Part shown: one piece after another, positions 33,116 to 61,555 of the stretch
Layout of the letters: every line of letters starts with the position of its first letter
Numbering within the stretch: the stretch's first letter is position 1
Position numbers and translations under genes: made by a program
Assembly (NCBI GenBank): GCA_023515795.1
Contig: JALGPX010000056.1
Coordinates: forward strand, 1 to 64,000
Length of the DNA stretch: 64,000 nucleotides
Reading direction: 5' to 3'
DNA from: Amoeboaphelidium occidentale
Taxonomy: Eukaryota; Aphelidiomycota; Aphelidea
Notes under the pieces: model-generated
What the model was told of the DNA's origin: nothing
Seen by the model: only the letters and a program-made list of their open reading frames with translations
Database searches by the model: none

Positions 33116-35629
33116 CTAATCTGAATAAAGAATCTTTAGTTTTTCAACCATTGTTTCATACTCTTGTTCGTGTTGTTTAAATCTCATTGATAATTTCAAC
33201 ATGAAACCATTCTCAATTTCCCGTTCACTCAACTGATGTTCCTGTTCTTCGCGTTCCAGAATCGTTTGGACAAAAGTCAGTGCCATTTTGGAATTCTGAC
33301 AAACCAACAGTCCACCTTCAATAGCATCTTTAACATTGAATTTAAAAGTCTGTTTCTGAAGAACGCCTGGTCCGTACAATTTCTGTAACCTTTCAATCCT
33401 CTTGATTCTATCAAGTATTGTCTGAAAATACTCCAATGTCGTCATTTTCTTTGTATCCTTTTGGAAATTCAAAGCATACTGTTTGGAAGATTTATAAACT
33501 CTAGAAAACATTTCCGGAGTCCTATCCATAGAAGCACGCATTAACTTTAGAATTTTGGAAACTTCAATCATGTAATCTTGAACAATAGGTTGCAGTAATA
33601 CAACTTCAAAATTCAACTTGATATACTCTACACACAATAGTAGTTTCATATCTTCATCATCTTCATAGTGTACATTCTTACAAACTTCCAATGCCATCTT
33701 CAAATCTCTACGAACTTGTTGTGTCTTGAATATCTCAAGAGGTCCTTCCAACAAATCACGACCCGATTCCAAGAATCCTTCATGATTATTATTTCCAATT
33801 TTCTTATTAGAATCTATAGAAGAAGACGTTTGAAGCCTTTTCATCTTCAAAGCAAAAGGAAGAGGATTCACAACCAATCGAACAAACAAAACATCTTTTT
33901 CACCATCTGCTTGTTTCAATTCTTCAAACCTGAAATCTTTTGTAAAGTCTTCAGCAAACAATGCTCCATTAGAAGAAGAAGAAGAAGAAGAAGAGCCTTC
34001 ATTCCTTGTAGCCAATACTTTATAAAACGTCCTTAAAAAACTAAACTGATACTGCATAGCATCCAACACTTCATAAATTCTAGTAGTAGTTTTATCTTCA
34101 GGGTTAGCACTGTCACTGATTATAAACTCCTTGTCTATCCTTTGCAATAACTGATCCATTCTTTCATACTCTCTCTTTGCAATTCTCTTGTACACTGCAA
34201 AATTCTTTTTCAGTTTCATTGAATACACTCGAACAGTACCCATCAATTCCTCCAACTCACTCTCATCAACTATAGCAGGACTATAAGAAGGTTTCTTCTT
34301 TCGTTGATGCTTCAAATGCTCCAAGCCTGATTCTACTCTTTCCAATGCAGCCTTGACCATTCGATAACTCTCATGCTCTGCTGCAGCGAAATGCTGTAAA
34401 TCATAATACTTGAATACATGTAATAATTCTTCATGAATCTTTTGGAAAGAATGAGGCAGAGTATCCCAATACAAACGTTCCCATTCCTGCGCTTTTTGGA
34501 GTAATTCTTTGCACCCTGGAACTGATAAACAAGCTTCTACAGAAGGAAACTCGCTCTTGCTTTGATTATCCTTTGTATTTACTTCCTTCTCATCTTCTGA
34601 AGAGGGAAATTCTAAATCATTAACAATCTGTTGTTGTTGTTGTTGCTGTTTCTTATTTGCCTTGTTCTTGTTCTTCTTTTTCTTTTTTGAAGAAGATCTT
34701 GTAGTTGTAGCAGCAACAGTAGTAACTTTTTCTTCTTCTTCTTCTACTTCTTCTACTTCTTTTATACTCCCCAGCACAGGAACATATTTTTCTTTATCAA
34801 TAGAATAAAAAGTTCTTGCATCTCCTACTTCACCTTCTATACCATCCCTCTCCAATTGGAACCAATGCACCAATCCTGGACTCTTTATATCATCATCATC
34901 ATCATCATCATCATCAACACTTTTCAAATTCTCATCAAAAAATGAAGGAAATCCATAAAACCCAACTTCATATTCAACATTAACAACAGCAGAGATTAAT
35001 TCATCACCAGAAGAAGAAGAAGAAGAAGAAGAAGAAGAAGCAGAAGAATCGTGATACAAGGCACGCAAAGGCACCACAATCTCATTTGTTGTTTTAAGCT
35101 GTGGTAGTAACTTTTTAATAGTATCCCTCTGATACTCCAACCTATCCGTACTCTTTCCATAATAATAAACACCAGGATTCTCTCTTTTGTCTTTAGTACC
35201 ATCCAATACCAATAAAACAGGCGCATCTTCATCACTTCCATTAGAATAAGAAGGAGGATAACCATAAACAACAACTAAACCGTTCTTATTCTGATTCTTT
35301 ACAATCCTATAAACAGGCACCAATTCTGAATCAACAGTAACAAGAAACGACTGGAACACCACCAGGATATTGCTGTCTGAATCATAGAATGATAATTGTT
35401 TGGATTCTTTAGGAATTCTCCTTTGTTGTTGATATAAAAGTGCTAATTGATGAGCATACTCATAGGATGAATCCATAAATTCAGAACCATACTTTTGGAT
35501 CAATTGATTTATAAAGTGTTTGTCTGCATTCAAATTCTTGTTTGGATTGAATTGATAAGTAGTAGAAGTAGAAGTGGTGGTAGTAATTGGAGATATTAGT
35601 AATAGTAATAGGATAGTTAGAAATATCAT
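33116..35629 (-). CDS. Secreted/ER helical protein with homopolymer runs
   Basis: 837 aa with a signal peptide (MIFLTILLLLLISPITTT). It contains runs of Ser, Asp, Glu, Lys and Gln made by trinucleotide repeats (for example around 34997-35040 and 34893-34916). The N-terminal third is beta-like; the C-terminal two thirds are helical with coiled-coil character. No known domain recognised. Length of the runs differs between this copy and the partial copies after the N joins. It is divergent to SPO11 with about 120 bp between start codons. Stop TAG. Confidence 0.7.
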   Translation of the reverse strand: MIFLTILLLLLISPITTTTSTSTTYQFNPNKNLNADKHFINQLIQKYGSEFMDSSYEYAHQLALLYQQQRRIPKESKQLSFYDSDSNILVVFQSFLVTVDSELVPVYRIVKNQNKNGLVVVYGYPPSYSNGSDEDAPVLLVLDGTKDKRENPGVYYYGKSTDRLEYQRDTIKKLLPQLKTTNEIVVPLRALYHDSSASSSSSSSSSSGDELISAVVNVEYEVGFYGFPSFFDENLKSVDDDDDDDDDIKSPGLVHWFQLERDGIEGEVGDARTFYSIDKEKYVPVLGSIKEVEEVEEEEEKVTTVAATTTRSSSKKKKKNKNKANKKQQQQQQQIVNDLEFPSSEDEKEVNTKDNQSKSEFPSVEACLSVPGCKELLQKAQEWERLYWDTLPHSFQKIHEELLHVFKYYDLQHFAAAEHESYRMVKAALERVESGLEHLKHQRKKKPSYSPAIVDESELEELMGTVRVYSMKLKKNFAVYKRIAKREYERMDQLLQRIDKEFIISDSANPEDKTTTRIYEVLDAMQYQFSFLRTFYKVLATRNEGSSSSSSSSNGALFAEDFTKDFRFEELKQADGEKDVLFVRLVVNPLPFALKMKRLQTSSSIDSNKKIGNNNHEGFLESGRDLLEGPLEIFKTQQVRRDLKMALEVCKNVHYEDDEDMKLLLCVEYIKLNFEVVLLQPIVQDYMIEVSKILKLMRASMDRTPEMFSRVYKSSKQYALNFQKDTKKMTTLEYFQTILDRIKRIERLQKLYGPGVLQKQTFKFNVKDAIEGGLLVCQNSKMALTFVQTILEREEQEHQLSEREIENGFMLKLSMRFKQHEQEYETMVEKLKILYSD

Positions 35630-35752
35630 TAGAATAAAGAATTCAAGGAGTAAAAAGAGAAAATTTTACTCTTTTGACCCCTGATTGGCAGTGATTGGTT
35701 GACAGATTTCAACAACAACAACAACAACAACAATTTCAATTGTTTCCTTAAA
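35630..35752. promoter_or_regulatory. Short divergent promoter with two inverted CCAAT boxes
   Basis: About 123 bp between the secreted-protein start and the SPO11 start in the collapsed assembly. GATTGGCAGTGATTGG carries two ATTGG (CCAAT on the minus strand) 12 bp apart, followed by a (CAA)n run. The same segment recurs at 35981-36103 and 36814-36936 because of contig overlaps. Confidence 0.5.
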
Positions 35753-35753
35753 N

Positions 35754-36138
35754 GATTCTTTAGGAATTCTCCTTTGTTGTTGATATAAAAGAGCTAATTG
35801 ATGAGCATACTCATAGGATGAATCCATAAATTCAGAACCATACTTTTGGATCAATTGATTTATAAAGTGTTTGTCTGCATTCAAATTCTTGTTTGGATTG
35901 AATTGATAAGTAGTAGAAGTAGAAGTGGTGGTAGTAATTGGAGAGATTAGTAATAGTAATAGGATAGTTAGAAATATCATTAGAATAAAGAATTCAAGGA
36001 GTAAAAAGAGAAAATTTTACTGTTTTGACCCCTGATTGGCAGTGATTGGTTGACAGATTTCAACAACAACAACAACAACAACAATTTCAATTGTTTCCTT
36101 AAAATGATGATTTCAAATTCTAGTTTAATACTACAATC

Positions 36139-36169
<31 letters not shown>

Positions 36170-36936
36170 ATTATATCCTCTTCTAATTCTACTAATTCTA
36201 CTGTTTTATGTTGTGATGACAGATTACAGATTCAACGCCAACAATTACTTGAAATCATATCCAATATTCAAAGGGATAAAAATAGATTATACTTTACAGT
36301 GGGAGACAGAAATAAGAGAGTATACNTATCCGTACTCTTTCCATAATAATAAACACCAGGATTCTCTCTTTTGTCTTTAGTACCATCCAATACCAATAAA
36401 ACAGGCGCATCTTCATCACGTCCATTAGAATAAGAAGGAGGATAACCATAAACAACAACTAAACCGTTCTTATTCTGATTCTTTATAATCCTATAAACAG
36501 GCACCAATTCTGAATCAACAGTAACAAGAAACGACTGGAACACCACCAGGATATTGCTGCCTGAATCATAGAATGATAATTGTTTGGATTCTTTAGGAAT
36601 TCTCCTTTGTTGTTGATATAAAAGAGCTAATTGATGAGCATACTCATAGGATGAATCCATAAATTCAGAACCATACTTTTGGATCAATTGATTTATAAAG
36701 TGTTTGTCTGCATTCAAATTCTTGTTTGGATTGAATTGATAAGTAGTAGAAGTAGAAGTGGTGGTAGTAATTGGAGAGATTAGTAATAGTAATAGGATAG
36801 TTAGAAATATCATTAGAATAAAGAATTCAAGGAGTAAAAAGAGAAAATTTTACTGTTTTGACCCCTGATTGGCAGTGATTGGTTGACAGATTTCAACAAC
36901 AACAACAACAACAACAATTTCAATTGTTTCCTTAAA
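35754..36936. repeat. Assembly-duplicated contig overlaps (two copies of the 35.1-35.75 kb segment)
   Basis: Single Ns at 35753 and 36326 join overlapping contigs. Bases 35754-36103 repeat 35403-35752 (350 nt), and 36327-36936 repeat 35143-35752 (610 nt), each with a few substitutions. Bases 36104-36325 repeat 36937-37155 with a 3-nt difference in a TTC run. Partial copies of the secreted gene and of SPO11 here are therefore not separate genes. The differences look allelic. Left unresolved, these would be mis-annotated as gene fragments. Confidence 0.9.
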
Positions 36937-39226
36937 ATGATGATTTCAAATTCTAGTTTAATACTACAATCTACTACTTCTTCTTCTTCTTCTTCTTCTA
37001 TTATATCCTCTTCTAATTCTACTAATTCTACTGTTTTATGTTGTGATGACAGATTACAGATTCAACGCCAACAATTACTTGAAATCATATCCAATATTCA
37101 AAGGGATAAAAATAGATTATACTTTACAGTGGGAGACAGAAATAAGAGAGTATACAATTACCAGAGGGATGGTAAAACGGAGAATTTAAAATTCAAGAGA
37201 TTGTTTCGGTTGATTCAGATATTATTGAAACAACAACAACAACAACAACAGGAGGAAGGAGTAACTGTCGTAACTGTTAGAGATTTGTACTATAGAGATG
37301 TTGAATTGTTTCATAATCAGAATGTTGTTAGAAATTTATTACAAAAGGATTTATACTTTATAGATTTGGAATTATTTAATGTATATTCTTCAAGTAAAGG
37401 ATTATATTACTATGATTCTTCTTTTGAATTGGAATTAGTTGGAAGTAGTAGTAATAACTTATTACAAAAGGCTGAGTACAATTGTATTCCATTCAAGTAT
37501 ACTCAACTAAAATTGTCATCTTTTAATTCTCCACCATTGTTGACGGTGTTGATTGTTGAAAAGGTTGCAGTGTTTACTTCTCTAGTTGCTAATAATAATA
37601 ATACTAATAATAATAGTTGTTGTTTTAAAGATGTTTTACTATTAACTCCAAGGGGATATGCTGATACTTGCTTTATTAAATTTATTAACAATTGTTTGTT
37701 GTTAAAATCTAAAGAGGTGGATATAAAAGTGTTGTTTCTTGTGGATGCAGATCCTTATGGAATACATATTCTATTGGATATTAAAAGAAAGATACTATCG
37801 GATGATGTTTCCAAGTTGAAATGGATTGGTGTGGATTTGATGGAATTGATTGAGTACAAGGATTTACTATTAAAAATNCTTCTTCTTCTTCTTCTTCTTC
37901 TATTATATCCTCTTCTAATTCTACTAATTCTACTGTTTTATGTTGTGATGACAGATTACAGATTCAACGCCAACAATTACTTGAAATCATATCCAATATT
38001 CAAAGGGATAAAAATAGATTATACTTTACAGTGGGAGACAGAAATAAGAGAGTATACAATTACCAGAGGGATGGTAAAACGGAGAATTTAAAATTCAAGA
38101 GATTGTTTCGGTTGATTCAGATATTATTGAAACAACAACAACAACAACAACAGGAGGAAGGAGTAACTGTCGTAACTGTTAGAGATTTGTACTATAGAGA
38201 TGTTGAATTGTTTCATAATCAGAATGTTGTTAGAAATTTATTACAAAAGGATTTATACTTTATAGATTTGGAATTATTTAATGTATATTCTTCAAGTAAA
38301 GGATTATATTACTATGATTCTTCTTTTGAATTGGAATTAGTTGGAAGTAGTAGTAATAACTTATTACAAAAGGCTGAGTACAATTGTATTCCATTCAAGT
38401 ATACTCAACTAAAATTGTCATCTTTTAATTCTCCACCATTGTTGACGGTGTTGATTGTTGAAAAGGTTGCAGTGTTTACTTCTCTAGTTGCTAATAATAA
38501 TAATAATAATAATAATAGTTGTTGTTTTAAAGATGTTTTACTATTAACTCCAAGGGGATATGCTGATACTTGCTTTATTAAATTTATTAACAATTGTTTG
38601 TTGTTAAAATCTAAAGAGGTGGATATAAAAGTGTTGTTTCTTGTGGATGCAGATCCTTATGGAATACATATTCTATTGGATATTAAAAGAAAGATACTAT
38701 CGGATGATGTTTCCAAGTTGAAATGGATTGGTGTGGATTTGATGGAATTGATTGAGTACAAGGATTTACTATTAAAAATGAACAAGTGTGATTATAAGAG
38801 GGCAATTTTAGTATTAAATATGTTAAAAGATGATGATTCTTCTTCTTCTTCTTATTCTGATGATGATGATGATGATGATCATCATTTATTGTCTTTGGAA
38901 TTACTCCTGACTGTACAGAGGATGATGTGGTATGGGGTAAAGGCAGAGATTGATGTGNAATGAACAAGTGTGATTATAAGAGGGCAATTTTAGTATTAAA
39001 TATGTTAAAAGATGATGATGATTCTTCTTCTTCTTCTTCTTCTTATGATGATGATGATGATGATGATCATTTATTGTCTTTGGAATTACTCCTGACTGTA
39101 CAGAGGATGATGTGGTATGGGGTAAAGGCAGAGATTGATGTGTTGCATGAGATTAACGAGAGTGATTATGGGCATGAAGTTAAACAAGAAGGGTTGGTGG
39201 AGTATGTTAGAAGAAAGGTTAAATAA
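36937..39226 (+). CDS. SPO11: SPO11 meiotic DNA double-strand-break protein (split by N joins)
   Basis: Collapsing the overlaps (36937-37877, then 38780-38957, then 39143-39226) gives 401 codons, about 400 aa, close to known SPO11. VRDLYYRDVELF holds the catalytic tyrosine (second Tyr, by analogy with yeast Tyr135). LIVEKVAVF gives the Toprim Glu, LLTPRGYAD the glycine-arginine motif, and LFLVDADPYG the Asp-x-Asp metal site. It cleaves DNA by a topoisomerase VI-like transesterification to start meiotic recombination. Homopolymer Ser, Gln, Asn and Asp insertions come from trinucleotide repeats. Bases 37879-38779 and 38959-39142 are overlap duplicates at the Ns 37878 and 38958. Confidence 0.9.
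37879..39142. repeat. Further contig-overlap duplications inside SPO11
   Basis: After the N at 37878, about 900 nt (37879-38779) repeat 36976-37877. After the N at 38958, bases 38959-39142 repeat 38778-38957. Copies differ mainly in AAT, TTC and GAT repeat number, as expected for alleles or misassembled microsatellites rather than real tandem duplication. Confidence 0.88.
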
Positions 39227-39259
39227 TTAGAGGTTTATGGAATAGAAGTTGTGTATCAA

Positions 39260-40423
39260 TTAGAATGGAGGTCTTTCTCCTCTTCTTCTGTCTCTGTTTC
39301 TGTTGTAGTAAGGAGATCGTCTGTCTCTTTCAAAAGGTGAGGGTGACCGTCTTCTTCTTTCTCTTTCAAAAGGTGAGGGTGACCGTCTTCTTCTTTCTCT
39401 TTCAAAAGGCGAGGGTGATCGTCTTCTTCTTTCATATGGAGATGGCGACCTCCTCCTTCTGTCTCTTTCAAAAGGTGAGGGTGACCTGCTTCTTCTGTCT
39501 CTTTCGAAGGGTGAGGGTGACCTGCTTCTGCTTATTGTTCTCCTCCTTCTTCTTCTGTCTCTTTCATAATAAGGAGAGCGTGACCTACTCCTGCTCCTGC
39601 TTTGTCTTCTTTCAAAGTCATCGTCATCATTCTGTCTGCGGTTGCGACGTGGTGGTGGCGGTGGTGATGGTGATGACGAATGTTCCCTTGATCTTGCTCG
39701 TTCCCTGAGTATTTTCCTTTCTGGCGACACAACTACCCGCTGCTGCTGCTGCTGCTGCTGCTCTTCGCCCTCCTCAACCTCTACTTCNCGTGACCTACTC
39801 CTGCTCCTGCTTTGTCTTCTTTCAAAGTCATCGTCATCATTCTGTCTGCGGTTGCGACGTGGTGGTGGCGGTGATGACGAATGTTCCCTTGATTTTGCTC
39901 GTTCCCTGAGTATTTTCCTTTCTGGCGACACAACTACCCGCTGCTGCTGCTGCTGCTGCTGCTCTTCGCCCTCCTCAACCTCTACTTCCTCTTTTATACC
40001 AAGTGCCATTCTAAACTTTTCATTCTCCACTTCCTTAGCACGATTATTATTATCTTTTGTAGATCCTTCAAGATGATTAATGTGTTCCAACTTCTTATAC
40101 TTTTGTTCTTCCTTTTCTATAATTTCCTGTATTTCTTCTTCTGTTAATCCTTCTTCCTGTAATTCTGCCACTTTCAATGCTCTTCTTCTCTTTAGTTCGT
40201 AATCTCCATTACCATTCGCAGTAGTTATAGAAGAAGTCCTGTTTTTCAAGAATGCAAATGGATTCCCTGCACCTGCACCTGCACCTGCACCTGCACCTGA
40301 ACTGGAACTGGAACTGGAACTAACTTCCACTCTCTTGTTTGCCCTCAAATGACTGAGATTCTTTTGGACGTATCCATTTGTGCCGGAACCTCTGACAGTT
40401 CTTAATCCCACTCCATTATTCAT
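39260..40423 (-). CDS. Cwc21/SRRM2-like spliceosome protein with RS tail
   Basis: The N-terminus YNGVGL-type block (here NNGVGLRTVRGSGTNGYVQ) and the helix EEEIQEIIEKEEQKY match the cwf21 domain of Cwc21/SRRM2, which contacts Prp8 and the pre-mRNA exon in activated spliceosomes. A poly-Gln run and a long Arg/Ser/Pro-rich tail with repeated SPSPFERDRR units follow. An N at 39788 splits the frame; 39789-39988 repeat 39579-39787 with a 9-nt difference. The collapsed protein is about 320 aa. Divergent from the uL10m gene, with start codons 40 bp apart. Confidence 0.82.
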   Translation of the reverse strand: MNNGVGLRTVRGSGTNGYVQKNLSHLRANKRVEVSSSSSSSSGAGAGAGAGAGNPFAFLKNRTSSITTANGNGDYELKRRRALKVAELQEEGLTEEEIQEIIEKEEQKYKKLEHINHLEGSTKDNNNRAKEVENEKFRMALGIKEEVEVEEGEEQQQQQQQRVVVSPERKILRERAKSREHSSSPPPPRRNRRQNDDDDFERRQSRSRSRSXEVEVEEGEEQQQQQQQRVVVSPERKILRERARSREHSSSPSPPPPPRRNRRQNDDDDFERRQSRSRSRSRSPYYERDRRRRRRTISRSRSPSPFERDRRSRSPSPFERDRRRRSPSPYERRRRSPSPFERERRRRSPSPFERERRRRSPSPFERDRRSPYYNRNRDRRRGERPPF

Positions 40424-50234: not shown

Positions 50235-51365
50235 CTCAAGGAAATTTTTTTATTCTCGCGGATCCGGTCGGTGTTGCAATATTGTTTGGAAAATCCGGTC
50301 GGCCCGAGCAGCTTACCGGATTGAGCCGGATTACACCGTATTTAGCCTTAAAACCAATAGAACTCAAGCTTACTAGAGTAATATCACTCCGTACCATGCC
50401 CGGCGACAGGCTTTACCTGATATCTACCGGAAAGAAGGACCACTGTGGTCACTTGCATCACTAGGAGCCATCTGACCATATGTTCTGCACTTCCATCATG
50501 ATAATGACTACAACTCCATATCACTACAGACATTGTTCTCGCAGCAACGATTTCAGTCCTTAACGGCTCTGAGCACATATGATCAGCGGACATAAGCCAT
50601 ATGTTCAAAAAACTCTGCTATACAAGCTAGCCATCAAGCGATCCGTTTCCTTTTTTTCAAAATGATTTCTTTGATCTTGAGCTGATGTCTGCTTCTTTCA
50701 TCATTAGTTCAGGCTTTACTTTCAAGATCAAAGGCTTTCATTCGCAGATCGATGACAAGACTGATTATACTACTGGTCCTTTGGCCTCATTGAATGGTGT
50801 ACTCTTTGGCCATCCACTGAGCCCTCATGGTCAATAATTAAAACTTTACACCACGTGCCACTCTACATCAACCGGAGACTGTGGGGCAAGGAAGAATCAG
50901 CTGTAACAACCCCCTTTTTACTAATCTTTTAGACTCCAGAAACATGGCTGCAAAAGAAACTGTTCAGAATGAAAGGAGAAGAAAGACACAGACCGCCGCA
51001 GGAACAATCTACCCACAGCTTTGGAGGTAGCCGTTATAGTGCAAGATAACCAGCTTGATGTTTCATCCAGAGAGATTGTTTTATAAAAGGTGGATGGTTA
51101 TATACGGCGAATATCTGATATTAGCGGCGCTAATGATCCTCTTCATTATGTTCTATTCTTTCCTGGAGGTGACTATGGATATCATTAAGTACTTGAATAC
51201 TCTGATATGCATGTTAGACGGCGCCGCATTGTTACTACTGCTTGTCGCAAAGTAATGATACTTAGACATCTGAAGTCCGTATGCTCCTTATATCTTCTAT
51301 AGATGGCGTGCTCTCAAATCAATGAAACAATAAAATAAAATCTTTAGTTCTCTCTGACTACAGCA
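50235..51365. other. Long gene-poor stretch with a CCGGAT cluster
   Basis: 1.13 kb. Four copies of ATCCGG or its reverse lie within 80 bp: ATCCGGTCGG near 50263 and 50292, and CCGGATT near 50320 and 50331. GACCACTGTGGTC is a small palindrome at about 50438. Downstream there is little coding signal except the small membrane ORF at 50944. The stretch could be the left part of an inserted element that includes the two genes that follow. Confidence 0.4.
50944..51255 (+). CDS. Possible small two-helix membrane protein
   Basis: MAAKETVQNERRRKTQ opens an ORF that ends in TAG at 51030 unless a 27-nt GT-AG interval (51027-51053) is spliced. The join then reads to 51255, giving 94 aa with two hydrophobic helices (YLILAALMILFIMFYSFL and LDGAALLLLLVA). 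The intron is shorter than the others here. Without it only the 66-codon downstream frame, without a good start, remains. No family recognised. Confidence 0.3.
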
Positions 51366-52147
51366 ATGCCAAAGAAAGTTTCCAAGAACTACAGGAACAA
51401 GACTCCTGCGCAGATCAACGAGATTAGACGTAAGAACAGAGAAATCACCGCTTACAGAAGATCCATTGAAGGCAGAGTAAGAAAAGGATTGAAACAACTT
51501 GAGGAAGATGGAACAGAATACGTTGTTATTCCAAAGATCTTGAGCACAATGGCTGACACATCATATAGAAGATGGCAGGAAGAAAGAAATTCAGTTCCTC
51601 TTCCAGAAGTCTGCGGTTATATTCAACCGAAACATGGAAGAAGGCAGTTTGATCTTGGCCAGAACAGCGCTTACCGCCAGAACTTATACCCAAAACTAGA
51701 TAAATTGGAAAAAGCCTTGAAGATTATTTTCCCGATGATCCTTGGCATCATGTGATGAAATATCTGGTTTCTGATCCTGGAACAACTGCCCAGGTTTTAC
51801 ACACTGACAATCCCGATCCTAATCGTTTCGTTTTCTTCGGAGGAATGGAAGCAAAGAGTGTACTCGCCGTTTTTAATAAGACATCAAAGAAGATGAAAAA
51901 GGTTGAGTACAACCGTGGTGATTTGGTCATTATCAAAAGCACAACTATTCACGCTGGCTGGTTTAATGATTCTGATGAACCACACTACAGGGCCTTTTTT
52001 GATATTGGAAAGTTCCTTTTGCCTCAAGCGGGATACAAACAGTTGACCAAGTATCCTGTTGAGACATTGAAAGAAACCTTTGGAGTCTCTAAAACATTTG
52101 CAGAAGGGCTTGGCTCGTCAAAATTATTGGACCCTATGTTGAAATAA
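51366..52147 (+). pseudogene. Putative 2OG-Fe(II) oxygenase-like gene with a frameshift
   Basis: The first frame (51366-51734) encodes a basic N-terminus and a helical segment. The second frame, one base behind, runs to 52147 and has a double-stranded beta-helix look: VLHTDN (H-x-D), RGDLVIIKSTTIHAGW (distal His) and HYRAFFDI (Arg for 2-oxoglutarate). The two frames meet at TTTCCCG (51728-51734); a -1 step there, or one missing C, gives IIFPDDPWHHVMKY and 260 residues. No GT-AG intron fits. Either programmed frameshifting, an error, or a decayed gene. Substrate unknown. It sits directly upstream of the Fanzor gene. Confidence 0.5.
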
Positions 52148-52804
52148 ACCAAACGATCTTTTTATTACTCAGAGCTGTGCCTAATTGCAAAATAATCATA
52201 ATGTAACAATCTTTCGTTAGTATCATTGCGCATCATAAGCTATTTGTAAAGCATAGAGACAAGACTCTCAATCATTACAACGCTAACATTTTTTTCTACT
52301 TGGTTCATATTCATTGTTTCACGCATGCCACACACACGCCAACTGTTTTTTATCCTTTGAATAGCCAACCATTAACCTGTAGAACGCCTCACTATGGACC
52401 TGCAACAATTCCTGAAGTCTGTACCAAGTCATGACACAATCTGCAAAAATGTGTCATGACTCTTACAGAAGACGTAGCAGCGCACCAGATAGTTCTTGTG
52501 CTCGTTTCCGCTCGTAACACACAAAGTTAGTCTTTTGTTCCTTCCTAACGCAAGATATAATATTTAATCTCATCGCAAGTCACTAGAGACGACAAGCTCC
52601 CGCTTTTGATTCGTGCTGTTATGTACACAAGATATAGATCAATCTTGTCGATCTCTTCGGTTACAAATATGGAAAATCTTTTTCTCAGAATTGAATTCGG
52701 TGTTCTTTGAATAAACCTAGCTTTCATTGACTACCGCAATTCTACACGTGCTGTTTCACTTTTTATAACTCATTTGTGATCACGTTCTGCGCAAAATTTA
52801 ACTA
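52148..52804. other. Intergenic region upstream of the Fanzor gene
   Basis: 657 bp without an ORF of note. It contains a perfect 12-bp inverted repeat at 52427-52461 (separate entry). AT-rich CTTTTTATAACT (about 52758) may be the Fanzor promoter. It could also encode a noncoding RNA for the nuclease, but no conserved structure can be claimed. Confidence 0.4.
52427..52461. repeat. Perfect 12-bp inverted repeat (stem-loop)
   Basis: AGTCATGACACA, an 11-nt loop (52439-52449) and TGTGTCATGACT form a perfect 12-bp hairpin 344 bp before the Fanzor ATG. The arms contain the palindrome GTCATGAC. It could be a hairpin of a guide RNA, a binding site or an element end. It is the strongest inverted repeat I found by eye in this region. 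Confidence 0.7.
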
Positions 52805-55800
52805 ATGGGGATAAAAGGCTTTGCGGCATTTTCCAAAAAGCACAGTTTGTTTCCAGAGGAATTAAAACTAGAACAATTCAAAATAGATTTCCAGAACTCC
52901 GAAATTATTGTGGATTTGTTTGGGTCCTTTTATAATCTGTGTACTAGTTACGCAATGAATAATGAGTTTTCGAAATTGGCCTACTGCATTAAATCAATCT
53001 TTAAAGGGATGAACGTAATTTTTTACCTGGATGGTGCTAGATCAAAGCAAAAGCACAACACTCATACTTTGCGACATACAGCAAGACAATTTAAAGTTCA
53101 ACAGTTGAATAACCTGGTTGATGGGCTTAAGCCGTAGCAGAAAGTTAAGAAGTCTAAGTGGAAAAAATTGCATAGTTTACAGAAAAGCTGCTTTCGTATT
53201 ACTAAAGATCACACAGAAGCTTTGAGAACTTCATTTGAATCAATTGAATTGAAGACAGTCATTTCAAATTACGAGGCTGATGTTGCTATTGCAAAAATTA
53301 TTTCAGATATGAACGATGACAAAAGAAACTCCGTTGTTGTTGTCTCCGGAGATTCCGACCTTATAATTCACAATGCTCCATTGGTTGCAAGACCTTGTTT
53401 CAACAACAAGTTTGACTCCCAGTCGCTTTAATTCAGACTTGCAAAAAGAACTCAGATCTTAAAATGCTTGAATATTTCAAGCTTCGGGTTGATTGCTCTT
53501 GGAATACTCTCTGGCAATGATTATTGCGAAAACATTAAGGGGTTTGGATTGAGCAAAGTCCATCAGTTCATTATAAGCTGTGATGCAGATAAGACTATGA
53601 CTACGAAGGAAATAATCAATGCATTTACTCAAATACACGGAGTCTGTAATCACTTTGATATAGCATATAACGTGTTTGTGAATCACAAAGAAGAACAGTG
53701 TTTATTGTGCATAACACATACAGTTCAAGAACATTATGAAAAGATCTTGTTTAAAGTTGATGAATTTAAGAAGCTTTATGAAAATTGGAAAGCTGAACAG
53801 AAAGCTGCATATGAAATTCGATCGTTAGAACAATTGAAACACCTAGTGTTAAACGGGCAACGGACTCGGTTCAGTCCTTTAGTAAATGCAGAATATGGGA
53901 GGTACAAAACAAAGCTGCTGAATAAGACTAAAATAAGTTCGNNNNNNNNNNNNNNNNNNNNNTAGAACAATTGAAACACCTAGTGTTAAACGGGCAACGG
54001 AATCGGTTCAGTCCTTTAGTAAATGCAGAATATGGGAGGTACAAAACAAAGCTGCTGAATAAGACTAAAATAAGTTCGATCACTGGGCCAGAAGCAAACG
54101 CTAAGGACCCTGAAGAAACTAGTCCACCCAGTAATCCTTCAAAGCGTAAAAGCAAAAGAAAAGCTTACCCAAAGAAACCGCGAAATGGAAAAACGAAGAA
54201 GACACCAAGGCGTAAGAAATCTAATATGGCGACTCGCTCTACCAAGTCTGATAAACCGCGTAAGACGGCTGTCCATACACAGGCTACCAAGGATATGCAA
54301 GGTCTCAAGAAACAATATGAGACAAAAACATGGAAACTTGGCACATTGAAGGCTTGTCTAAGAAGATCAAGTTTACCTGAAGATTTCAAATCAACTTTAT
54401 TGGATCGAATTCAAGGTGTAGTTGCATTGATCAATAGGGCAACATACGCTGCGGTTATCATCACAGAGCTCTATTATAAACAAAGCACCGCTTCCAAAGA
54501 CACTGATGACGAATTCCTAATTGATGTTGGTGGTGGCAAACAGTACTGGGGAAATCTTATTGCCTTTCTTGTTAAGCCATGCGATTTTGGTAAGAATGGT
54601 CCAAGATTATACCAGAAAGTGAGAAAATTTATGGATGACAACAAACTCAAGTTCACGTTAACAGAAGCAGAGTCGAAATATGTTGAATTTATTTACTGCA
54701 AGCTACTTCATTATCACGGAACATCAGTTGACAGAATCATGGCACTTCACTTCATCGGTTCTTCGACAGTTCTTGCTGCCAAAGTTTTGGAGGTTTGCCC
54801 AGAAAAGGCAAAAAAAGTTGAAAAGCTTATGGAAATGGTAGATCAAACCATATTAAATAAGGGCAAGAAAAATAAGAAAAATGTAGAAGTAGAAATCGAC
54901 ATAAGCGGGCAGTCGTCTAGTAATATTACTGGTAAAATTTGATTTGGTATTGAAGATTAAACTAATTTTAAGATCAACTAGTACCGAACGTGGTCTTGAA
55001 GCTTTCTACAACTGGTGCTAAGAAATTATCAAAAAAGCGAAAAAGAGACGAGGCAGAGAAGGATGAAGAAAAGGTTAAGAATGAAGTTCTTTATAAGCCT
55101 GGTGTATTTGAAACATACTCGTTAGTCAGATCGTTTGCAACCATGAATGAAATGTTGCCACAATGTGAACGATTCAAGGCTTTTCCGCAATACTCTCCTT
55201 CCCACAGTTCTGTGGATCTTACCGAAGACTTTTTGCTAAGTATAATTGGCAAAGAAGATTCAAAAGAGTATCTGGCTGATTATTTGGTTAAGAATGGCGA
55301 GAAAACAAATTTTAAGTTAAATCACGACTGCAATGGCATGGTTTTACAACACGTTTTTGGCCTGAGATCAAGAGGCTACAGATCGTATTCTCTCATAGGA
55401 AATCAAGACACACAGAAAAGGTTTGTGCTTATGACTTCGTTTAGCACGGACGGTTTCAATCTCTTGGTCAATGTTATTGATAAGCATGCAAAAAAAGTCA
55501 AACATGAAACAGGACCACCAATGGCAGCGAAAGATTTAAGGTTCAACAAGTCGACCGATATAATCTTGGGATTAGATCTTGGTCAAACTTATACTGTTGG
55601 AGCTGTGTCGTGGCTCCCTGATGGTAGTAAGAAAATCTTGGCTGTGAAGAAAACTGCGCTTGGCGAGCCTGGCCGACTCCATAGAAACTGGCTCAACAAG
55701 ACTAAAATGAAGGATGAGCACAAGATTTTGAGAGACGCTGAGAACAGTGTTGTTGGACAAGTAACAGAGGAGTCCGATGAAATTTACTTCACTCGCATAA

Positions 55801-56411
55801 TGGAACGATACTCAACAATATCTCTATTCTACAACTCTCATGCTGTACGCAAACGAAGTTTTGAATACCAGTGTGCCATGCAAAGAGAAATGGACAGCGT
55901 CTTTTATGCATTGATTTCAATGGTTGGCTTGAAACCGAACCAGAAAGTCAAAGGTAATAAGCGCATATATGTTGGAGTTGGAACTGGAGACTTTGATTCA
56001 ACTGGCTCTTTTCATACATCTTTCCTTAAATACTTTGTAAGAAAAGCAAAACCAATGGGTCTTACTATACTTGGTGTTGATGAATACTTTACTTCTCAAA
56101 AATGTGTTCGTTGTCACGACTTCACAGAATCACTGTCAATGAGAGCGAAACAGTGTCCCAAATGCAAAGTTGTGTTTCACAGAGATATATTGGCTGCTGA
56201 TAATATGTGCGCTGCATTATCTGCGATGTTGGAGAAGGGTGAACGCCCCGAATATTTGTGCAAGCCTCCTGATGATGAAACAGAAGAAGCGACAGAAGAA
56301 CCTGTTCAAGATGTCAAGAAGAGTAGTATCAAAGGGCGCAACCCGAAAGAGAAAGACAAGAAGGACAAGCAAGAGGGTTTAAGAAGAAGCTCTCGACACA
56401 AAAAGCGCTAG
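52805..56411 (+). CDS. FEN1/XPG-like nuclease plus Fanzor (TnpB-type RuvC) composite gene
   Basis: Segments 52805-53941, 54079-54931 and 54982-56411 join into 1140 codons after collapsing a gap overlap and a 50-nt intron (54932-54981, CTAAT branch-like). The N-terminal module is FEN1/XPG-like: MGIKG, VDLFGSF, YLDGA, YEADVAIA, SGDSDLI and GNDYC cover all seven acidic sites. A Lys/Arg-rich nuclear-localisation-like middle and a helical domain follow. The C-terminal module is Fanzor: GLDLGQTY (Asp), LGVDEYFTSQKC (Glu), CVRC...CPKC zinc ribbon and RDILAADNM (Asp). In-frame stops TAG (53135) and TAA (53429) interrupt the FEN part only. Known Fanzors are RNA-guided DNA nucleases of eukaryotic mobile elements. 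Confidence 0.8.
53942..53962. other. 21-N assembly gap with duplicated flanks
   Basis: The 116 nt before the gap (53826-53941) and after it (53963-54078) are identical except for one base, so the gap joins overlapping contigs. Collapsing one copy keeps the Fanzor gene in frame. Confidence 0.92.
54932..54981 (+). other. 50-nt intron in the Fanzor gene
   Basis: GTAAAA donor, ACTAATT branch-like site and AACTAG acceptor. Phase 1. It contains the TGA that would end the first frame and restores the frame leading into the RuvC domain, which otherwise has no ATG. Confidence 0.75.
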
Positions 56412-56486
56412 AAAATGCCGCAAAAAAGAAAAAGGCCAACTGTCACGGAATTAGAACCGGATCGGCAGTCGGGAAACCTTTTTTTA

Positions 56487-59610: not shown

Positions 59611-60681
59611 ATGTCCTTCTTGAAAAATTTGGCTAAAAACGAACAGCTTATCAACAAAGCAATTGATATGGGTGCAAAGTTCCTTGGTGGTAACGATGGT
59701 ACGGCTGGAAGGGCCTCTGAAACTGCAAACGAAGAATGGTCTTCTCATCAGCACCAGTCTCAAGGAAGTACTAAGAAGGCGCTATTTATCGGTATCAACT
59801 ATTTTGGCACGAAGGCTGAACTGCGCGGTTGTATTCAGGATGTTAAGAATATCAAAGCGTTTATCGAGCAAGTTGGCTTTCCTCAAGAAAACTTTGTGGT
59901 ACTAACGGATGACCAGCAAAATCAACAATTCCAGCCTACCAGGGAAAACATTCTAAATGCGATGAAATGGTTAGTCAGTGGAGCTAAGCCTGGTGATGTG
60001 TTGTTTTTGCATTACTCTGGACATGGTTCTCACCAGAAGGATCAGGATGGCGATGACGGAGATGGTCGTGATGAAACCATCTGTCCAGTTGATTATGAGC
60101 GTGCAGGCATGATTTGTGACGATGAAATGCACGAACTTATGGTGAAACCATTGCAAGCTGGTGTCAAATTTGTTTCCATTTTTGATTGTTGTCACTCTCA
60201 TTCCATTCTGGACCTTCCTTACACATACAGCGTTGATGGTCATTTGGAAATTATTGAAACTGATAATCGTATCGCTGCAGCTAAACAATTCGCTAAAGCT
60301 GGAATCCACTACATGAGCGGTCGAAAGCAAGAAGCTGTTCGTGGCTTGATGGACAGTTTCAAGACTTTGTCAAGTTCAAGCTCAAGTCAGTCCGGTAGCG
60401 CAGTCTCAAAAGAAAAACAGGAAGAGAAGACTGCCCAGGCTGACGTTATTCAGTTCTCTGGTTGTCTTGATAGTCAAACTAGTGCTGATGCGACAATCAA
60501 TGGACATGCAACTGGTGCCATGTCTTATGCTTTCATGGAAGTTATGAGAAGAAATAATTTTAGTGTCTCATTTCAGCAATTATTGAAAGAAATCAGAGAA
60601 ATCTTGCATGGAAAATATTCTCAGACTCCTCAAATGTCTGCAGGAAGGAAGCTTCGAATGGATGTCCCATTCCACTTATGA
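59611..60681 (+). CDS. Type I metacaspase
   Basis: 356 aa. A short, acidic/Ser-rich prodomain precedes the caspase-like p20 region: KALFIGINYF, then FLHYSGHGSHQKDQDGDDGD with the catalytic His and the acidic calcium-binding stretch, then VSIFDCCHSHSILDLP with the catalytic Cys. The p10 part includes FSGCLDSQTSADA and GAMSYAFMEVM. A linker with Ser-rich repeats (about residues 250-275) joins them. These calcium-dependent cysteine peptidases cut after Arg/Lys and act in stress and aggregate control. No Pro/Gln-rich long prodomain as in yeast Mca1. TGA stop. Confidence 0.94.
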   Translation: MSFLKNLAKNEQLINKAIDMGAKFLGGNDGTAGRASETANEEWSSHQHQSQGSTKKALFIGINYFGTKAELRGCIQDVKNIKAFIEQVGFPQENFVVLTDDQQNQQFQPTRENILNAMKWLVSGAKPGDVLFLHYSGHGSHQKDQDGDDGDGRDETICPVDYERAGMICDDEMHELMVKPLQAGVKFVSIFDCCHSHSILDLPYTYSVDGHLEIIETDNRIAAAKQFAKAGIHYMSGRKQEAVRGLMDSFKTLSSSSSSQSGSAVSKEKQEEKTAQADVIQFSGCLDSQTSADATINGHATGAMSYAFMEVMRRNNFSVSFQQLLKEIREILHGKYSQTPQMSAGRKLRMDVPFHL

Positions 60682-60844
60682 GGGGATTTAATGAATAAAC
60701 GCTTTTGTTAAGTGAGGATACAGCGCGATGTTTCGTGAGTCAGAAGCTCCGCTGATTCAGTGTGAGTCACAATGCATCCCATATAAAGACACCGCAAAGT
60801 CAATCATTTCATATTTGTTTGTGAAACGCGAAGGATTATTTCTC

Positions 60845-61555
60845 ATGTCTCTAAGTAAGCCTGAACACATCGACATGCAAAAGGTCTACACTGACCCCGT
60901 CTACAGATTTGAATATTTGGCCAAGTTTGCTGATTTTGGCCAAGAAGACATCGACGCTATCCACGCCTCAGCTGGCGCAGTTGCTCCTTTGGTTCCTGTG
61001 ATTGTCGACAAAGTCTACGAAAAGCTCTTCTCATTTGATGTTACCAAGGAAGTGTTCTTGAAAAGAAATGCTGGTTTCAGTGGCAAATTGGCTCACGATT
61101 TAACTGACTTGACACTGGAGAATGAACAAATCAAGTTTCGTAAAGATTTCTTGGGAAAGTATCTGACAAAGCTCGTTACTGGAAAGTACGATCACAACTT
61201 CATCAGATATCTTGACTATGTTGGCAAGATTCATGTAAACTTGAAGGGAAGTTCCGGAAAGGCGCATATTGATTATGTGCATTGTTCTGCTCTGTTTGGC
61301 TTTGTGACTTCTTTTGTTGTTGATGCTTTAATGAATGCTGGTTTGCCTCACGATGTTGAAAAGAAGACTGTTTTGGCATTTAACAAGTTGTTGTGGATTC
61401 AAAACGATTTCTTTGCAAAGTGGTACGTACGTGACGGTGATCAGTACACCCATTTGAGTGAAACCACAAAGACTCCTTTCCAGAAGGCTGTCACTCCACT
61501 CTCGATTCTCGTAGCAGGGTTTGCTATTGCAGCAGCCATCTACATGAAGAAATAA
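60845..61555 (+). CDS. Tail-anchored protoglobin-domain protein
   Basis: 236 aa starting MSLSKPEHID. A protoglobin/globin-coupled-sensor-like domain spans about residues 10-195: KFADFGQEDIDAIHASAG, then DYVGKIHVNL with the likely haem-ligating His, followed by HIDYVHCSALFGF. A hydrophobic helix near the end (SILVAGFAIAAAIYM) with Lys residues after it fits a tail anchor in ER or mitochondrial outer membrane. The frame opens at 60728, but ATATAAAG at about 60781 is a better promoter for the internal Met. It may sense or bind O2/NO. The stop TAA is within GAAATAAAG. Confidence 0.85.
   Translation: MSLSKPEHIDMQKVYTDPVYRFEYLAKFADFGQEDIDAIHASAGAVAPLVPVIVDKVYEKLFSFDVTKEVFLKRNAGFSGKLAHDLTDLTLENEQIKFRKDFLGKYLTKLVTGKYDHNFIRYLDYVGKIHVNLKGSSGKAHIDYVHCSALFGFVTSFVVDALMNAGLPHDVEKKTVLAFNKLLWIQNDFFAKWYVRDGDQYTHLSETTKTPFQKAVTPLSILVAGFAIAAAIYMKK

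What the first reader, a model, noticed from the sequence alone, without database searches (positions are those of the whole stretch)
52805..56411. Dual-nuclease gene: FEN1/XPG-like module fused to a Fanzor RuvC module
One collapsed, spliced reading frame of 1140 codons links two different nuclease folds. Seen: all seven FEN1-type acidic positions, a basic NLS-like middle, then RuvC Asp-Glu-Asp and a CxxC...CxxC ribbon. The divisibility of the joined length by three after removing a 116-nt overlap plus gap and a 50-nt intron supports the model. Known Fanzors are RNA-guided nucleases; a flap-type nuclease fused to one could process ends or the guide RNA. I have only a vague impression of related long proteins in other early fungi and cannot check it.
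Basis: partly seen in the sequence, partly recalled or inferred. Interest (0 to 1): 0.88.

Follow-up and report, generated by a model that had tools for sequence, protein, structure and literature searches.

The report
Two-nuclease fusion carried by a transposon
A parasite of algae carries mobile DNA whose gene joins a FEN1/XPG-type DNA-repair nuclease to a CRISPR-like RNA-guided nuclease (Fanzor); the copy in this window is damaged, but an intact copy lies elsewhere in the same genome.

Summary
The window is from Amoeboaphelidium occidentale (an aphelid): NCBI protein MP638_002087 matches this locus. The fusion is real: an XPG/FEN1-type nuclease, a lysine-rich linker and a Fanzor-type RuvC nuclease lie in one gene. 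The window's assembly gap falls between the halves, so contiguity rests on copies C197, C146 and C119, which have no N inside the gene. C119 is intact: 1157 aa, one 35-nt intron at the place and phase of the window's 41-nt intron.

The window copy is a decayed copy in a mobile element (~50248-56478) whose ends resemble Helitron2. The FEN module shows purifying selection (dN/dS 0.16 and 0.19 in the two unsaturated within-family pairs) and keeps seven acidic residues in 4 of 4 models. Fanzor membership is imperfect: displaced Glu present, DPG absent. My paper searches found no described fusion of this kind; one preprint names 'Fanzor flap endonuclease homologs' in viruses in a single sentence. 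Function is inferred.

The parts
50248..56478 (+). Mobile element carrying the fusion gene (6231 bp by these ends), between a ZIP-transporter gene and an EH-domain gene
   Evidence: Left and right ends shared with copies in C197, C146 and C46 while flanks differ; neighbours by Pfam
50248..50500 (+). Left end, TTTTATTCTCGCGGATCCGGTCGG..., repeated in C197, C146, C46 and, truncated, in C189
   Evidence: the 4 of 4 complete left ends read TTTTA before TTCTCG; bases further out differ
51366..52147 (+). Second gene of the element, broken here (two frames): 2OG-Fe(II)-dioxygenase-like (HxD...H...R, motif recalled); open in C197 (258 aa); not found in C146
   Evidence: Pfam PhyH only 0.032, below cut-off; no PDB match
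52805..53794 (+). FEN1/XPG-type nuclease module, residues ~1-330
   Evidence: XPG_I 24.0 bits as read with X at stops, 25.9 bits in the six-frame search, cut-off 24.9; C119, C146, C197 36.4, 28.7, 27.6 bits, C188 none; profile vs PDB EXO1 3.2e-10, RAD2 5.6e-10, FEN1 1.3e-9
53135..53137 (+). In-frame TAG, nonsense codon rather than intron
   Evidence: C197, C146 and C119 code straight across
53429..53431 (+). In-frame TAA, nonsense codon rather than intron
53826..54078 (+). Assembly seam: 116-nt repeat (53826-53941 and 53963-54078, 115 of 116 identical) around 21 N (53942-53962)
54097..54321 (+). Lysine/arginine-rich linker (residues 386-460), NLS-like
54322..54931 (+). Presumed N-terminal lobe (WED/REC) of the Fanzor module, in the same exon as the FEN module; assigned by length and position only
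   Evidence: Collinear in C119 (one open frame of 691 codons, stop to stop) and other copies; no structure could be predicted
54932..54972 (+). Intron, 41 nt, GTAAAA...TTAAG
   Evidence: Position and phase kept in C119 with a 35-nt GTAAGT...CTAG intron of different sequence
54973..56411 (+). Second exon: RuvC (D at 55575-55577, E at 56082-56084, D at 56184-56186) and C4 zinc ribbon
   Evidence: PF07282 8.1e-11; motif spacing
56405..56431 (+). 27-nt motif GCGCTAGAAAATGCCGCNAAAAAGAAA kept at the 3' ends of these elements; possible guide-RNA scaffold or transposition signal
   Evidence: 10 places in the genome at up to 3 mismatches, reversed control 0; low third-position divergence in the last 60 codons, clear only in the two pairs with C146
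56412..56478 (+). Right end, ...ACCGGATCGGCAGTCGGGAAACC
   Evidence: Six family-1 copies align here, with changes; inverted match GATCCGGT to the left end

Best explanation
Shown by sequence: this is a decayed copy of a transposon-borne gene in which a FEN1/XPG-superfamily nuclease is fused, through a basic linker, to a Fanzor-like RuvC nuclease; one copy elsewhere in the genome (C119) is intact. Inferred mechanism: the gene rides on a Helitron2-like element in which no transposase was seen. The Fanzor half, guided by an RNA read from the element's 3' end and the flanking DNA, recognises the insertion site beside a T-rich left-flank motif (TTTA/TTTT) and cuts an allele from which the element is missing, so that repair copies the element back in. 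The FEN half acts on the single-strand/double-strand junctions made there (displaced strand of the R-loop, 5' flaps, terminal hairpins), trimming ends so that repair by homologous copying or strand annealing is favoured. The confidence given is for the anatomy. For the inferred steps I would give about 0.6 that the Fanzor half is RNA-guided and about 0.4 that the FEN half trims DNA ends at the Fanzor cut.
For: Intact C119 gene with both modules in 1157 aa; its first exon alone joins the FEN domain to the next module. Same order in C129, C197, C146 and, in separate frames, in C11 and C188; C5 and C38 run from FEN into the same downstream region before an N gap or the contig end. Seven FEN acidic positions and the RuvC D-E-D kept in 4 of 4 models. 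FEN module dN/dS 0.16 (C129-C197) and 0.19 (C129-C146), near the RuvC part's 0.12 and 0.14 in the same pairs. FEN homology: XPG_I above cut-off in C119, C146, C197 and, in the six-frame search, also in C5, C38, C189 and C129; fen_arch 8e-13 for C146; EXO1/RAD2/FEN1 by profile. RuvC: displaced Glu six residues before CxxC in 6 of 6 FEN-fused rows, the arrangement given for Fanzors in PMC10711439 (section 23 read). Mobile element: shared ends, different flanks; 11-nt asymmetric inverted repeats in C145 and C146, 0 of 5000 shuffles each; hairpins at both ends of family 2. Bao and Jurka (PMC3627910, passages) describe Fanzor1 in non-autonomous Helitron2 elements of Chlamydomonas, whose Helitron relatives insert after TTTT.
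Against: The window copy has two nonsense codons; C197 and C146 have one each, elsewhere; only one intact copy was seen. C145 has both family-2 ends and Fanzor pieces but no FEN half between them (the stretch is rearranged, with four single N), and C185 (DVG) has no FEN in the ~3.3 kb upstream, so FEN is not found in every relative. No expression data. No guide RNA shown: the 3' end folds no better than shuffles (z -0.89 and 0.26), covariation is weak. DPG of known Fanzors is absent. The profile of FEN-fused copies alone reaches no solved Fanzor at E up to 0.1 (best LaTranC 4.2e-6); SpuFz1 (8.8e-14) came with a profile that also held FEN-less DPG copies. No Helitron replicase found, but that search had no working control. 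Family-1 ends fold weakly. XPG N-region (PF00752) not detected. No structure predicted.
Confidence: 0.86

Rival explanations
1. The FEN module serves transposition itself: as a structure-specific nuclease it cuts or trims the hairpins and 5' flaps of a rolling-circle (Helitron2-like) intermediate, and the Fanzor half only brings it to the donor or target site.
For: Family-2 ends form strong hairpins (DNA fold z -2.62 left, -3.81 right) with an asymmetric inverted repeat; no transposase was recognised among the frames looked at in these elements.
Against: Family-1 ends fold weakly. The family-2 left end is shared by dozens of short elements (44 matching places, a lower bound), so something else probably mobilises such ends in trans.
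Confidence: 0.25
2. The FEN module processes RNA: it trims the guide RNA or RNA:DNA hybrid ends rather than DNA.
For: Position next to the RNA-guided module; signs of nucleotide-level constraint at the element's 3' end.
Against: The closest solved relatives are DNA nucleases (EXO1, RAD2, FEN1); no stable RNA fold seen.
Confidence: 0.1
3. Two adjacent unrelated genes, or an assembly artefact that joined two contigs at the N gap.
For: In the window the gap and the 116-nt repeat lie between the halves; in C11/C188 the halves are in separate frames; C145 has Fanzor pieces without FEN.
Against: C197, C146 and C119 have no N in the gene; C119 reads through FEN and the next region in one 691-codon frame. 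The FEN profile hits eight loci among the 33 fetched stretches scanned, the window copy being the ninth; in eight of these nine the sequence after FEN is the Fanzor module or its start; the ninth (C189) is rearranged.
Confidence: 0.04
4. The two stops in the window are real introns or recoded codons, so this copy makes a full protein (NCBI model P0001 and the first reader).
For: GT...AG borders exist around both places and P0001 lacks those stretches.
Against: Related copies code across both places with conserved residues such as KKSKWK. Four nonsense codons in three copies at four different places look like decay.
Confidence: 0.06

Closest known systems
Fanzor1 (SpuFz1 of Spizellomyces punctatus; PpFz1; GtFz1)
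   Same: RuvC D-E-D with the Glu six residues before a C4 zinc ribbon; carried by eukaryotic transposons; SpuFz1 is the best solved match of a mixed profile.
   Different: FEN/XPG module and basic linker in front; DLG/DMG instead of DPG; a profile of the FEN-fused copies alone misses solved Fanzors.
Fanzor1-bearing Helitron2 elements CRe-1, 2, 3 of Chlamydomonas (PMC3627910, passages read)
   Same: Fanzor gene in a non-autonomous element; hairpin ends with asymmetric inverted repeats (family 2 here); T-rich DNA at the left end.
   Different: No FEN module is mentioned in the passages read; here a dioxygenase-like second gene occurs in some family-1 copies.
'Fanzor flap endonuclease homologs (Fendons)' of two large DNA virus contigs (PMC11071296, section 18 read)
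   Same: The name joins Fanzor and flap endonuclease.
   Different: One sentence only; it does not say whether both nucleases are in one protein, and no sequence was compared here.
FEN1 / EXO1 / RAD2 (XPG) family
   Same: XPG I-region, seven acidic positions, MG[IV]KGF start.
   Different: XPG N-region not recognised by Pfam; fused to a RuvC nuclease.
TnpB / Cas12f / LaTranC
   Same: RuvC and zinc ribbon; LaTranC is the best solved match of the FEN-fused profile (4.2e-6).
   Different: Prokaryotic; Glu in the canonical place in typical TnpBs (PMC10711439, section 23); no FEN module known to me.

Membership tests
Fanzor | Motif D-X(125,275)-[TS][TS]-X-X-C4 finger-X(5,50)-RD (Bao and Jurka) | tested here: met
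   171 residues between D865 and T1037, then TSQKC, C4, 5 residues before RD
Fanzor | Alternative Glu six residues before the zinc finger | tested here: met
   EYFTSQKCVRC; 6 of 6 FEN-fused rows
Fanzor | DPG motif in RuvC-I | tested here: not met
   DLG or DMG in 6 of 6 FEN-fused rows, DVG in C185; DPG in the four FEN-less rows of this genome and in P0003 and P0004
Fanzor | Closest sequence relatives are Fanzors | tested here: inconclusive
   Mixed profile: SpuFz1 8.8e-14; FEN-fused profile alone: LaTranC 4.2e-6, no Fanzor at E up to 0.1; a FEN-fused profile finds FEN-less DPG copies of the genome at 5.6e-17 (C196), 1.5e-14 (C12) and 4.5e-14 (C188:54k) in a small set of fetched stretches
Fanzor | Guide RNA (omega RNA) and RNA-guided DNA cleavage | not testable with these tools
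   Only indirect: third-position constraint and a 27-nt motif at the 3' end
FEN1/XPG superfamily | XPG I-region | tested here: met
   36.4, 28.7, 27.6 bits in C119, C146, C197, cut-off 24.9; no match in C188; window 24.0 read with X, 25.9 in six-frame search
FEN1/XPG superfamily | XPG N-region (PF00752) | tested here: not met
   No match at E up to 10 or 1, with HMMER's filters on; MG[IV]KGF start and two N-terminal Asp present
FEN1/XPG superfamily | Seven active-site acidic residues (recalled from FEN1) | tested here: met
   4 of 4 models; second Glu of the ExE pair is Asp
Helitron2 | Asymmetric terminal inverted repeats | tested here: met
   11 nt in C145 and C146, 0 of 5000 shuffles each; weaker, 8 nt, in C119 (72 of 5000), C129 (135), C197 (172), C46 (177); the end stretches were chosen after the match had been seen
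Helitron2 | Hairpins at both ends | tested here: inconclusive
   Family 2: z -2.62 and -3.81; family 1: z -1.19, 1.07, -0.96
Helitron2 | No target-site duplication, insertion beside T-rich DNA | tested here: inconclusive
   Family 2 (C119, C145): right flanks show no repeat of the left flank; in C129 and C46 T-rich repeats (TTTTTTTA, TTTTA) stand on both sides and could be duplications
Helitron2 | RepHel replicase in an autonomous partner | tested here: inconclusive
   PF14214 found nothing, but the control genomes rang nowhere

The most novel reading that the evidence does not exclude
A distinct lineage of eukaryotic TnpB relatives (displaced Glu with DLG/DMG in RuvC-I) has made a structure-specific FEN/XPG nuclease part of its RNA-guided enzyme, giving a single protein that finds a site by RNA, opens an R-loop and processes the strands itself, as the retention machinery of a rolling-circle transposon family.
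Probability: 0.35. Interest if true: 0.88.

Novelty: new variant of a known kind. Interest (0 to 1): 0.7.

Why it matters
A natural fusion of an RNA-guided nuclease with a flap/structure-specific nuclease would suggest that strand processing after RNA-guided cutting is worth building into one enzyme, and it bears on how Fanzors help transposons persist. It also offers a natural design for testing how end processing steers repair at RNA-guided cuts, with an intact member (C119) that could be expressed.

Tried and rejected
Introns at 53.1 and 53.4 kb: rejected, sister copies code across them. One-off fusion or misassembly: rejected by C197, C146, C119. A 3157-aa frame next to FEN in C5: an N gap read as open frame. 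IS200/IS605-like reading of the ends: considered; the asymmetric inverted repeats fit Helitron2 better; no Y1 transposase was searched for. Guide RNA at the 3' end: not supported by folding. FEN in C145: not found even without filters (best chance match E 0.47).

Relatives elsewhere: searches returned only this species; one search returned nine proteins (only the 8000 candidates sharing most words were scored), seven of this species, plus P0004 and P0010. Viral contigs: 44 stretches matched a pattern, none a relative; the FEN alignment could not be used. Bacterial and archaeal genomes: 79 stretches matched, none a relative. Absence elsewhere is not shown.

Papers: searches of the open-licence library (12, 43, 79 and 81 listed 12 of 13, 40 of 54, 20 of 33 and 20 of 106 papers); judged by titles and abstract starts, none listed describes such a fusion. 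I read section 23 of PMC10711439 and section 18 of PMC11071296 whole, and passages of PMC10432273, PMC10711439, PMC3627910, PMC11071296 and PMC12719977; a term search in PMC11423790 had no hits. [quoted passage not shown] I saw no sequence or domain order for them. Other listed papers were seen as listings only. Supplements were not searched.

The tree has long branches and warns of false joins; I use it only for the coincidence of DPG with lack of FEN, which C185 (DVG, no FEN seen upstream) does not fit fully.
Full report
What organism and gene. A search with the joined window protein (X at two stops) returned two proteins, both from Amoeboaphelidium occidentale: MP638_002087 (1047 aa, 97% identical over 94%) and MP638_001650, partial. 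The first matches this locus and is annotated as one protein. The window is contig C129 of an 11.3-Mb assembly; taxonomy places the species in Aphelidiomycota.

The observation. A frame of 1142 codons runs from 52805 to 56411 once the 116-nt repeat around 21 N is counted once and a 41-nt intron is removed. The repeat is 115 of 116 identical and looks like an unmerged contig overlap. The N half matches XPG_I (5.4e-5, 24.0 bits, just under the cut-off of 24.9) and FEN1 structures (4.7e-4); the C half matches the Cas12f1-like TNB domain (8.1e-11). The frame contains TAG at 53135 and TAA at 53429.

Sister copies. Searching the genome with P0001 gave 42 matching places. C197, C146 and C119 hold both halves in order. 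C11 and C188 hold both halves, in separate frames, of a third, more distant family; whether by introns or decay is unresolved. C5 and C38 hold the FEN half and the start of the next region before an N gap or the contig end. C13, C145, C46, C141 and C76 hold pieces of the Fanzor half. A profile of the FEN half hits eight loci among the 33 stretches scanned: C146, C197, C119, C5, C38, C188, C11 and C189 (number of stretches); with the window that makes nine. C189 is rearranged. XPG_I over its cut-off also marks C157, C145:107665 and C105, presumably host repair genes, and C51 below it. Against a fixed pairing, C145 has both family-2 ends and Fanzor pieces but no FEN half in between; that stretch is rearranged and holds four single N.

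The stops are not introns. Aligned proteins of C129, C119, C197 and C146 run without gaps across both stops; for example the window's P-stop-QKVKKSKWKKLHSLQKSC corresponds to PNKKLKKSKWKQINILSKSC in C197, and FDSQSL-stop-FRLAKR to FDIHSMYLQMEMR. P0001 lacks just these stretches, so its two introns there are most likely artefacts of gene prediction. C197 and C146 each have one nonsense codon elsewhere (TAG at residue 645, TAA at 587). C119 has none: 1157 aa with one 35-nt GTAAGT...CTAG intron in the same position and phase as the window's 41-nt intron but with different sequence.

Contiguity. In the window the N gap is at residue ~379, between the halves, so this copy alone cannot prove the fusion. 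L031 and L032 (C197, C146) have no N, and L033 (C119) has one run outside the gene. C119's first exon lies in one open frame of 691 codons, stop to stop, reaching from FEN well into the next module.

Domains. FEN half: XPG_I 36.4, 28.7 and 27.6 bits for C119, C146 and C197, no match for the partial C188 row; archaeal FEN-1 model 8e-13, 2.5e-9, 5.5e-5 and 3.9e-4 for C146, C119, C197 and C188; profile against solved structures EXO1 3.2e-10, RAD2 5.6e-10, FEN1 1.3e-9. Seven acidic positions are kept in 4 of 4 models. Pfam's XPG N-region is not detected. Fanzor half: D865, E1034, D1068; the Glu lies six residues before CxxC in 6 of 6 FEN-fused rows, the feature that PMC10711439 (section 23) gives for Fanzors. 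The same section calls DPG near-exclusive in Fanzors; here RuvC-I is DLG or DMG. Four FEN-less Fanzor rows of this genome (C12, C188:54k, C196, C185 minus strand) have DPG; C185 plus strand has DVG and no FEN upstream. A mixed profile finds SpuFz1 at 8.8e-14, PpFz1 at 2.3e-12, GtFz1 at 7.4e-7; the FEN-fused profile alone finds LaTranC at 4.2e-6 and no Fanzor at E up to 0.1. I therefore call it Fanzor-like, with one defining feature tested and not met.

Selection and mosaics. Within family 1, FEN-module dN/dS is 0.16 (C129-C197, dS 2.55, close to saturation) and 0.19 (C129-C146, dS 1.03); the third pair is saturated. The RuvC part gives 0.12, 0.14 and 0.15. Between families the FEN values that could be computed (0.29 and 0.31) rest on nearly saturated sites. 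C197's FEN half is far more diverged from C129 (dS 2.55) than its RuvC half (0.32); as C197 has no N, this looks like exchange of the FEN half between copies.

The element. Copies share DNA up to a right end at window ~56478 and a left end at ~50248. Four of four complete family-1 left ends read TTTTA before TTCTCG. In family 2 the left end TTTATC[TG]CGCAGAGC is seen in C119, C38 and C145, and the right end ...GACTCGTTGATT in C119, C13 and C145, with hairpins (z -2.62 for the common left-end form, -3.81 for the right end) and an inverted repeat of 11 nt in C145 (0 of 5000 shuffles). C119's element is 4073 bp. The family-2 left end occurs at 44 or more places, mostly as its first ~100 bp. In the ten stretches fetched the flank just outside TTTA mostly differs; L054 and L060 share their flank, L059 reads TTAA. 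These features resemble the Helitron2 elements of PMC3627910 (passages). A second gene in family 1 is dioxygenase-like, present in C197, C129 and C189 and not found in C146, and broken in the window; its assignment rests on a recalled motif and weak Pfam scores. Whether TTTA belongs to the element or the target cannot be told without empty sites.

Possible guide RNA. Third-position divergence in the last 60 codons is 0.09-0.10 in three of three pairs, against 0.22-0.40 in the other windows of the two C146 pairs; in C129-C197 the contrast is small (0.03-0.39 elsewhere). A 27-nt motif there is nearly identical between families 1 and 2 although synonymous sites are near saturation; it occurs at ten places, by position all 3' ends of these elements or their fragments (C184 is a family-2 right-end fragment). 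Folding gives no support. The signal could equally be a transposition signal.

How it probably works. From known Fanzor and TnpB biology (PMC10432273, passages) the RuvC half should make an RNA-guided cut beside a flank motif and so help the element persist. XPG/FEN-type enzymes cut at single-strand/double-strand junctions (general knowledge), which an R-loop, a 5' flap or a terminal hairpin provides. I think end or strand trimming at the Fanzor cut is most likely; a role on rolling-circle intermediates is the main rival. None of this was tested.

Novelty. In the paper searches named under Tried and rejected no description of a FEN/XPG-Fanzor fusion turned up. [quoted passage not shown] it does not say whether both nucleases are in one protein. 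Subscription papers and supplements were not searched. I rate it a new domain combination in a known kind of enzyme and element; that sentence made me lower the interest slightly (0.72 to 0.70).

Noticed in passing
window 51366-52147; L031:7321-8097 (-): Dioxygenase-like gene inside the family-1 element; matches at C197, C189, C129 and C38:179234.
   Followed up: partly
window 33116-39788: Single-N positions (35753, 36326, 37878, 38958, 39788) next to partly duplicated reading frames, and GC down to 0.30; possibly further unmerged contig overlaps.
   Followed up: no
window 36937-37875: Spo11/topoisomerase VI A-like gene (TOP6A-Spo11 Toprim 6.1e-11) next to one of those N positions.
   Followed up: no
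C185 (L040) 2295-3278 (-) and 3294-4301 (+): Two different Fanzor-type frames back to back, one DPG and one DVG.
   Followed up: partly
C192:12114-12914 (L057): Short elements sharing the family-2 left end occur as a tandem pair of 359-nt units.
   Followed up: no
C145 (L035) 2331-7280: Element of 4947 bp with both family-2 ends and Fanzor pieces but no FEN half detected.
   Followed up: partly
window 60728-61555: Protoglobin gene (4.5e-39) in an aphelid, next to a caspase-domain gene (59611-60681).
   Followed up: no
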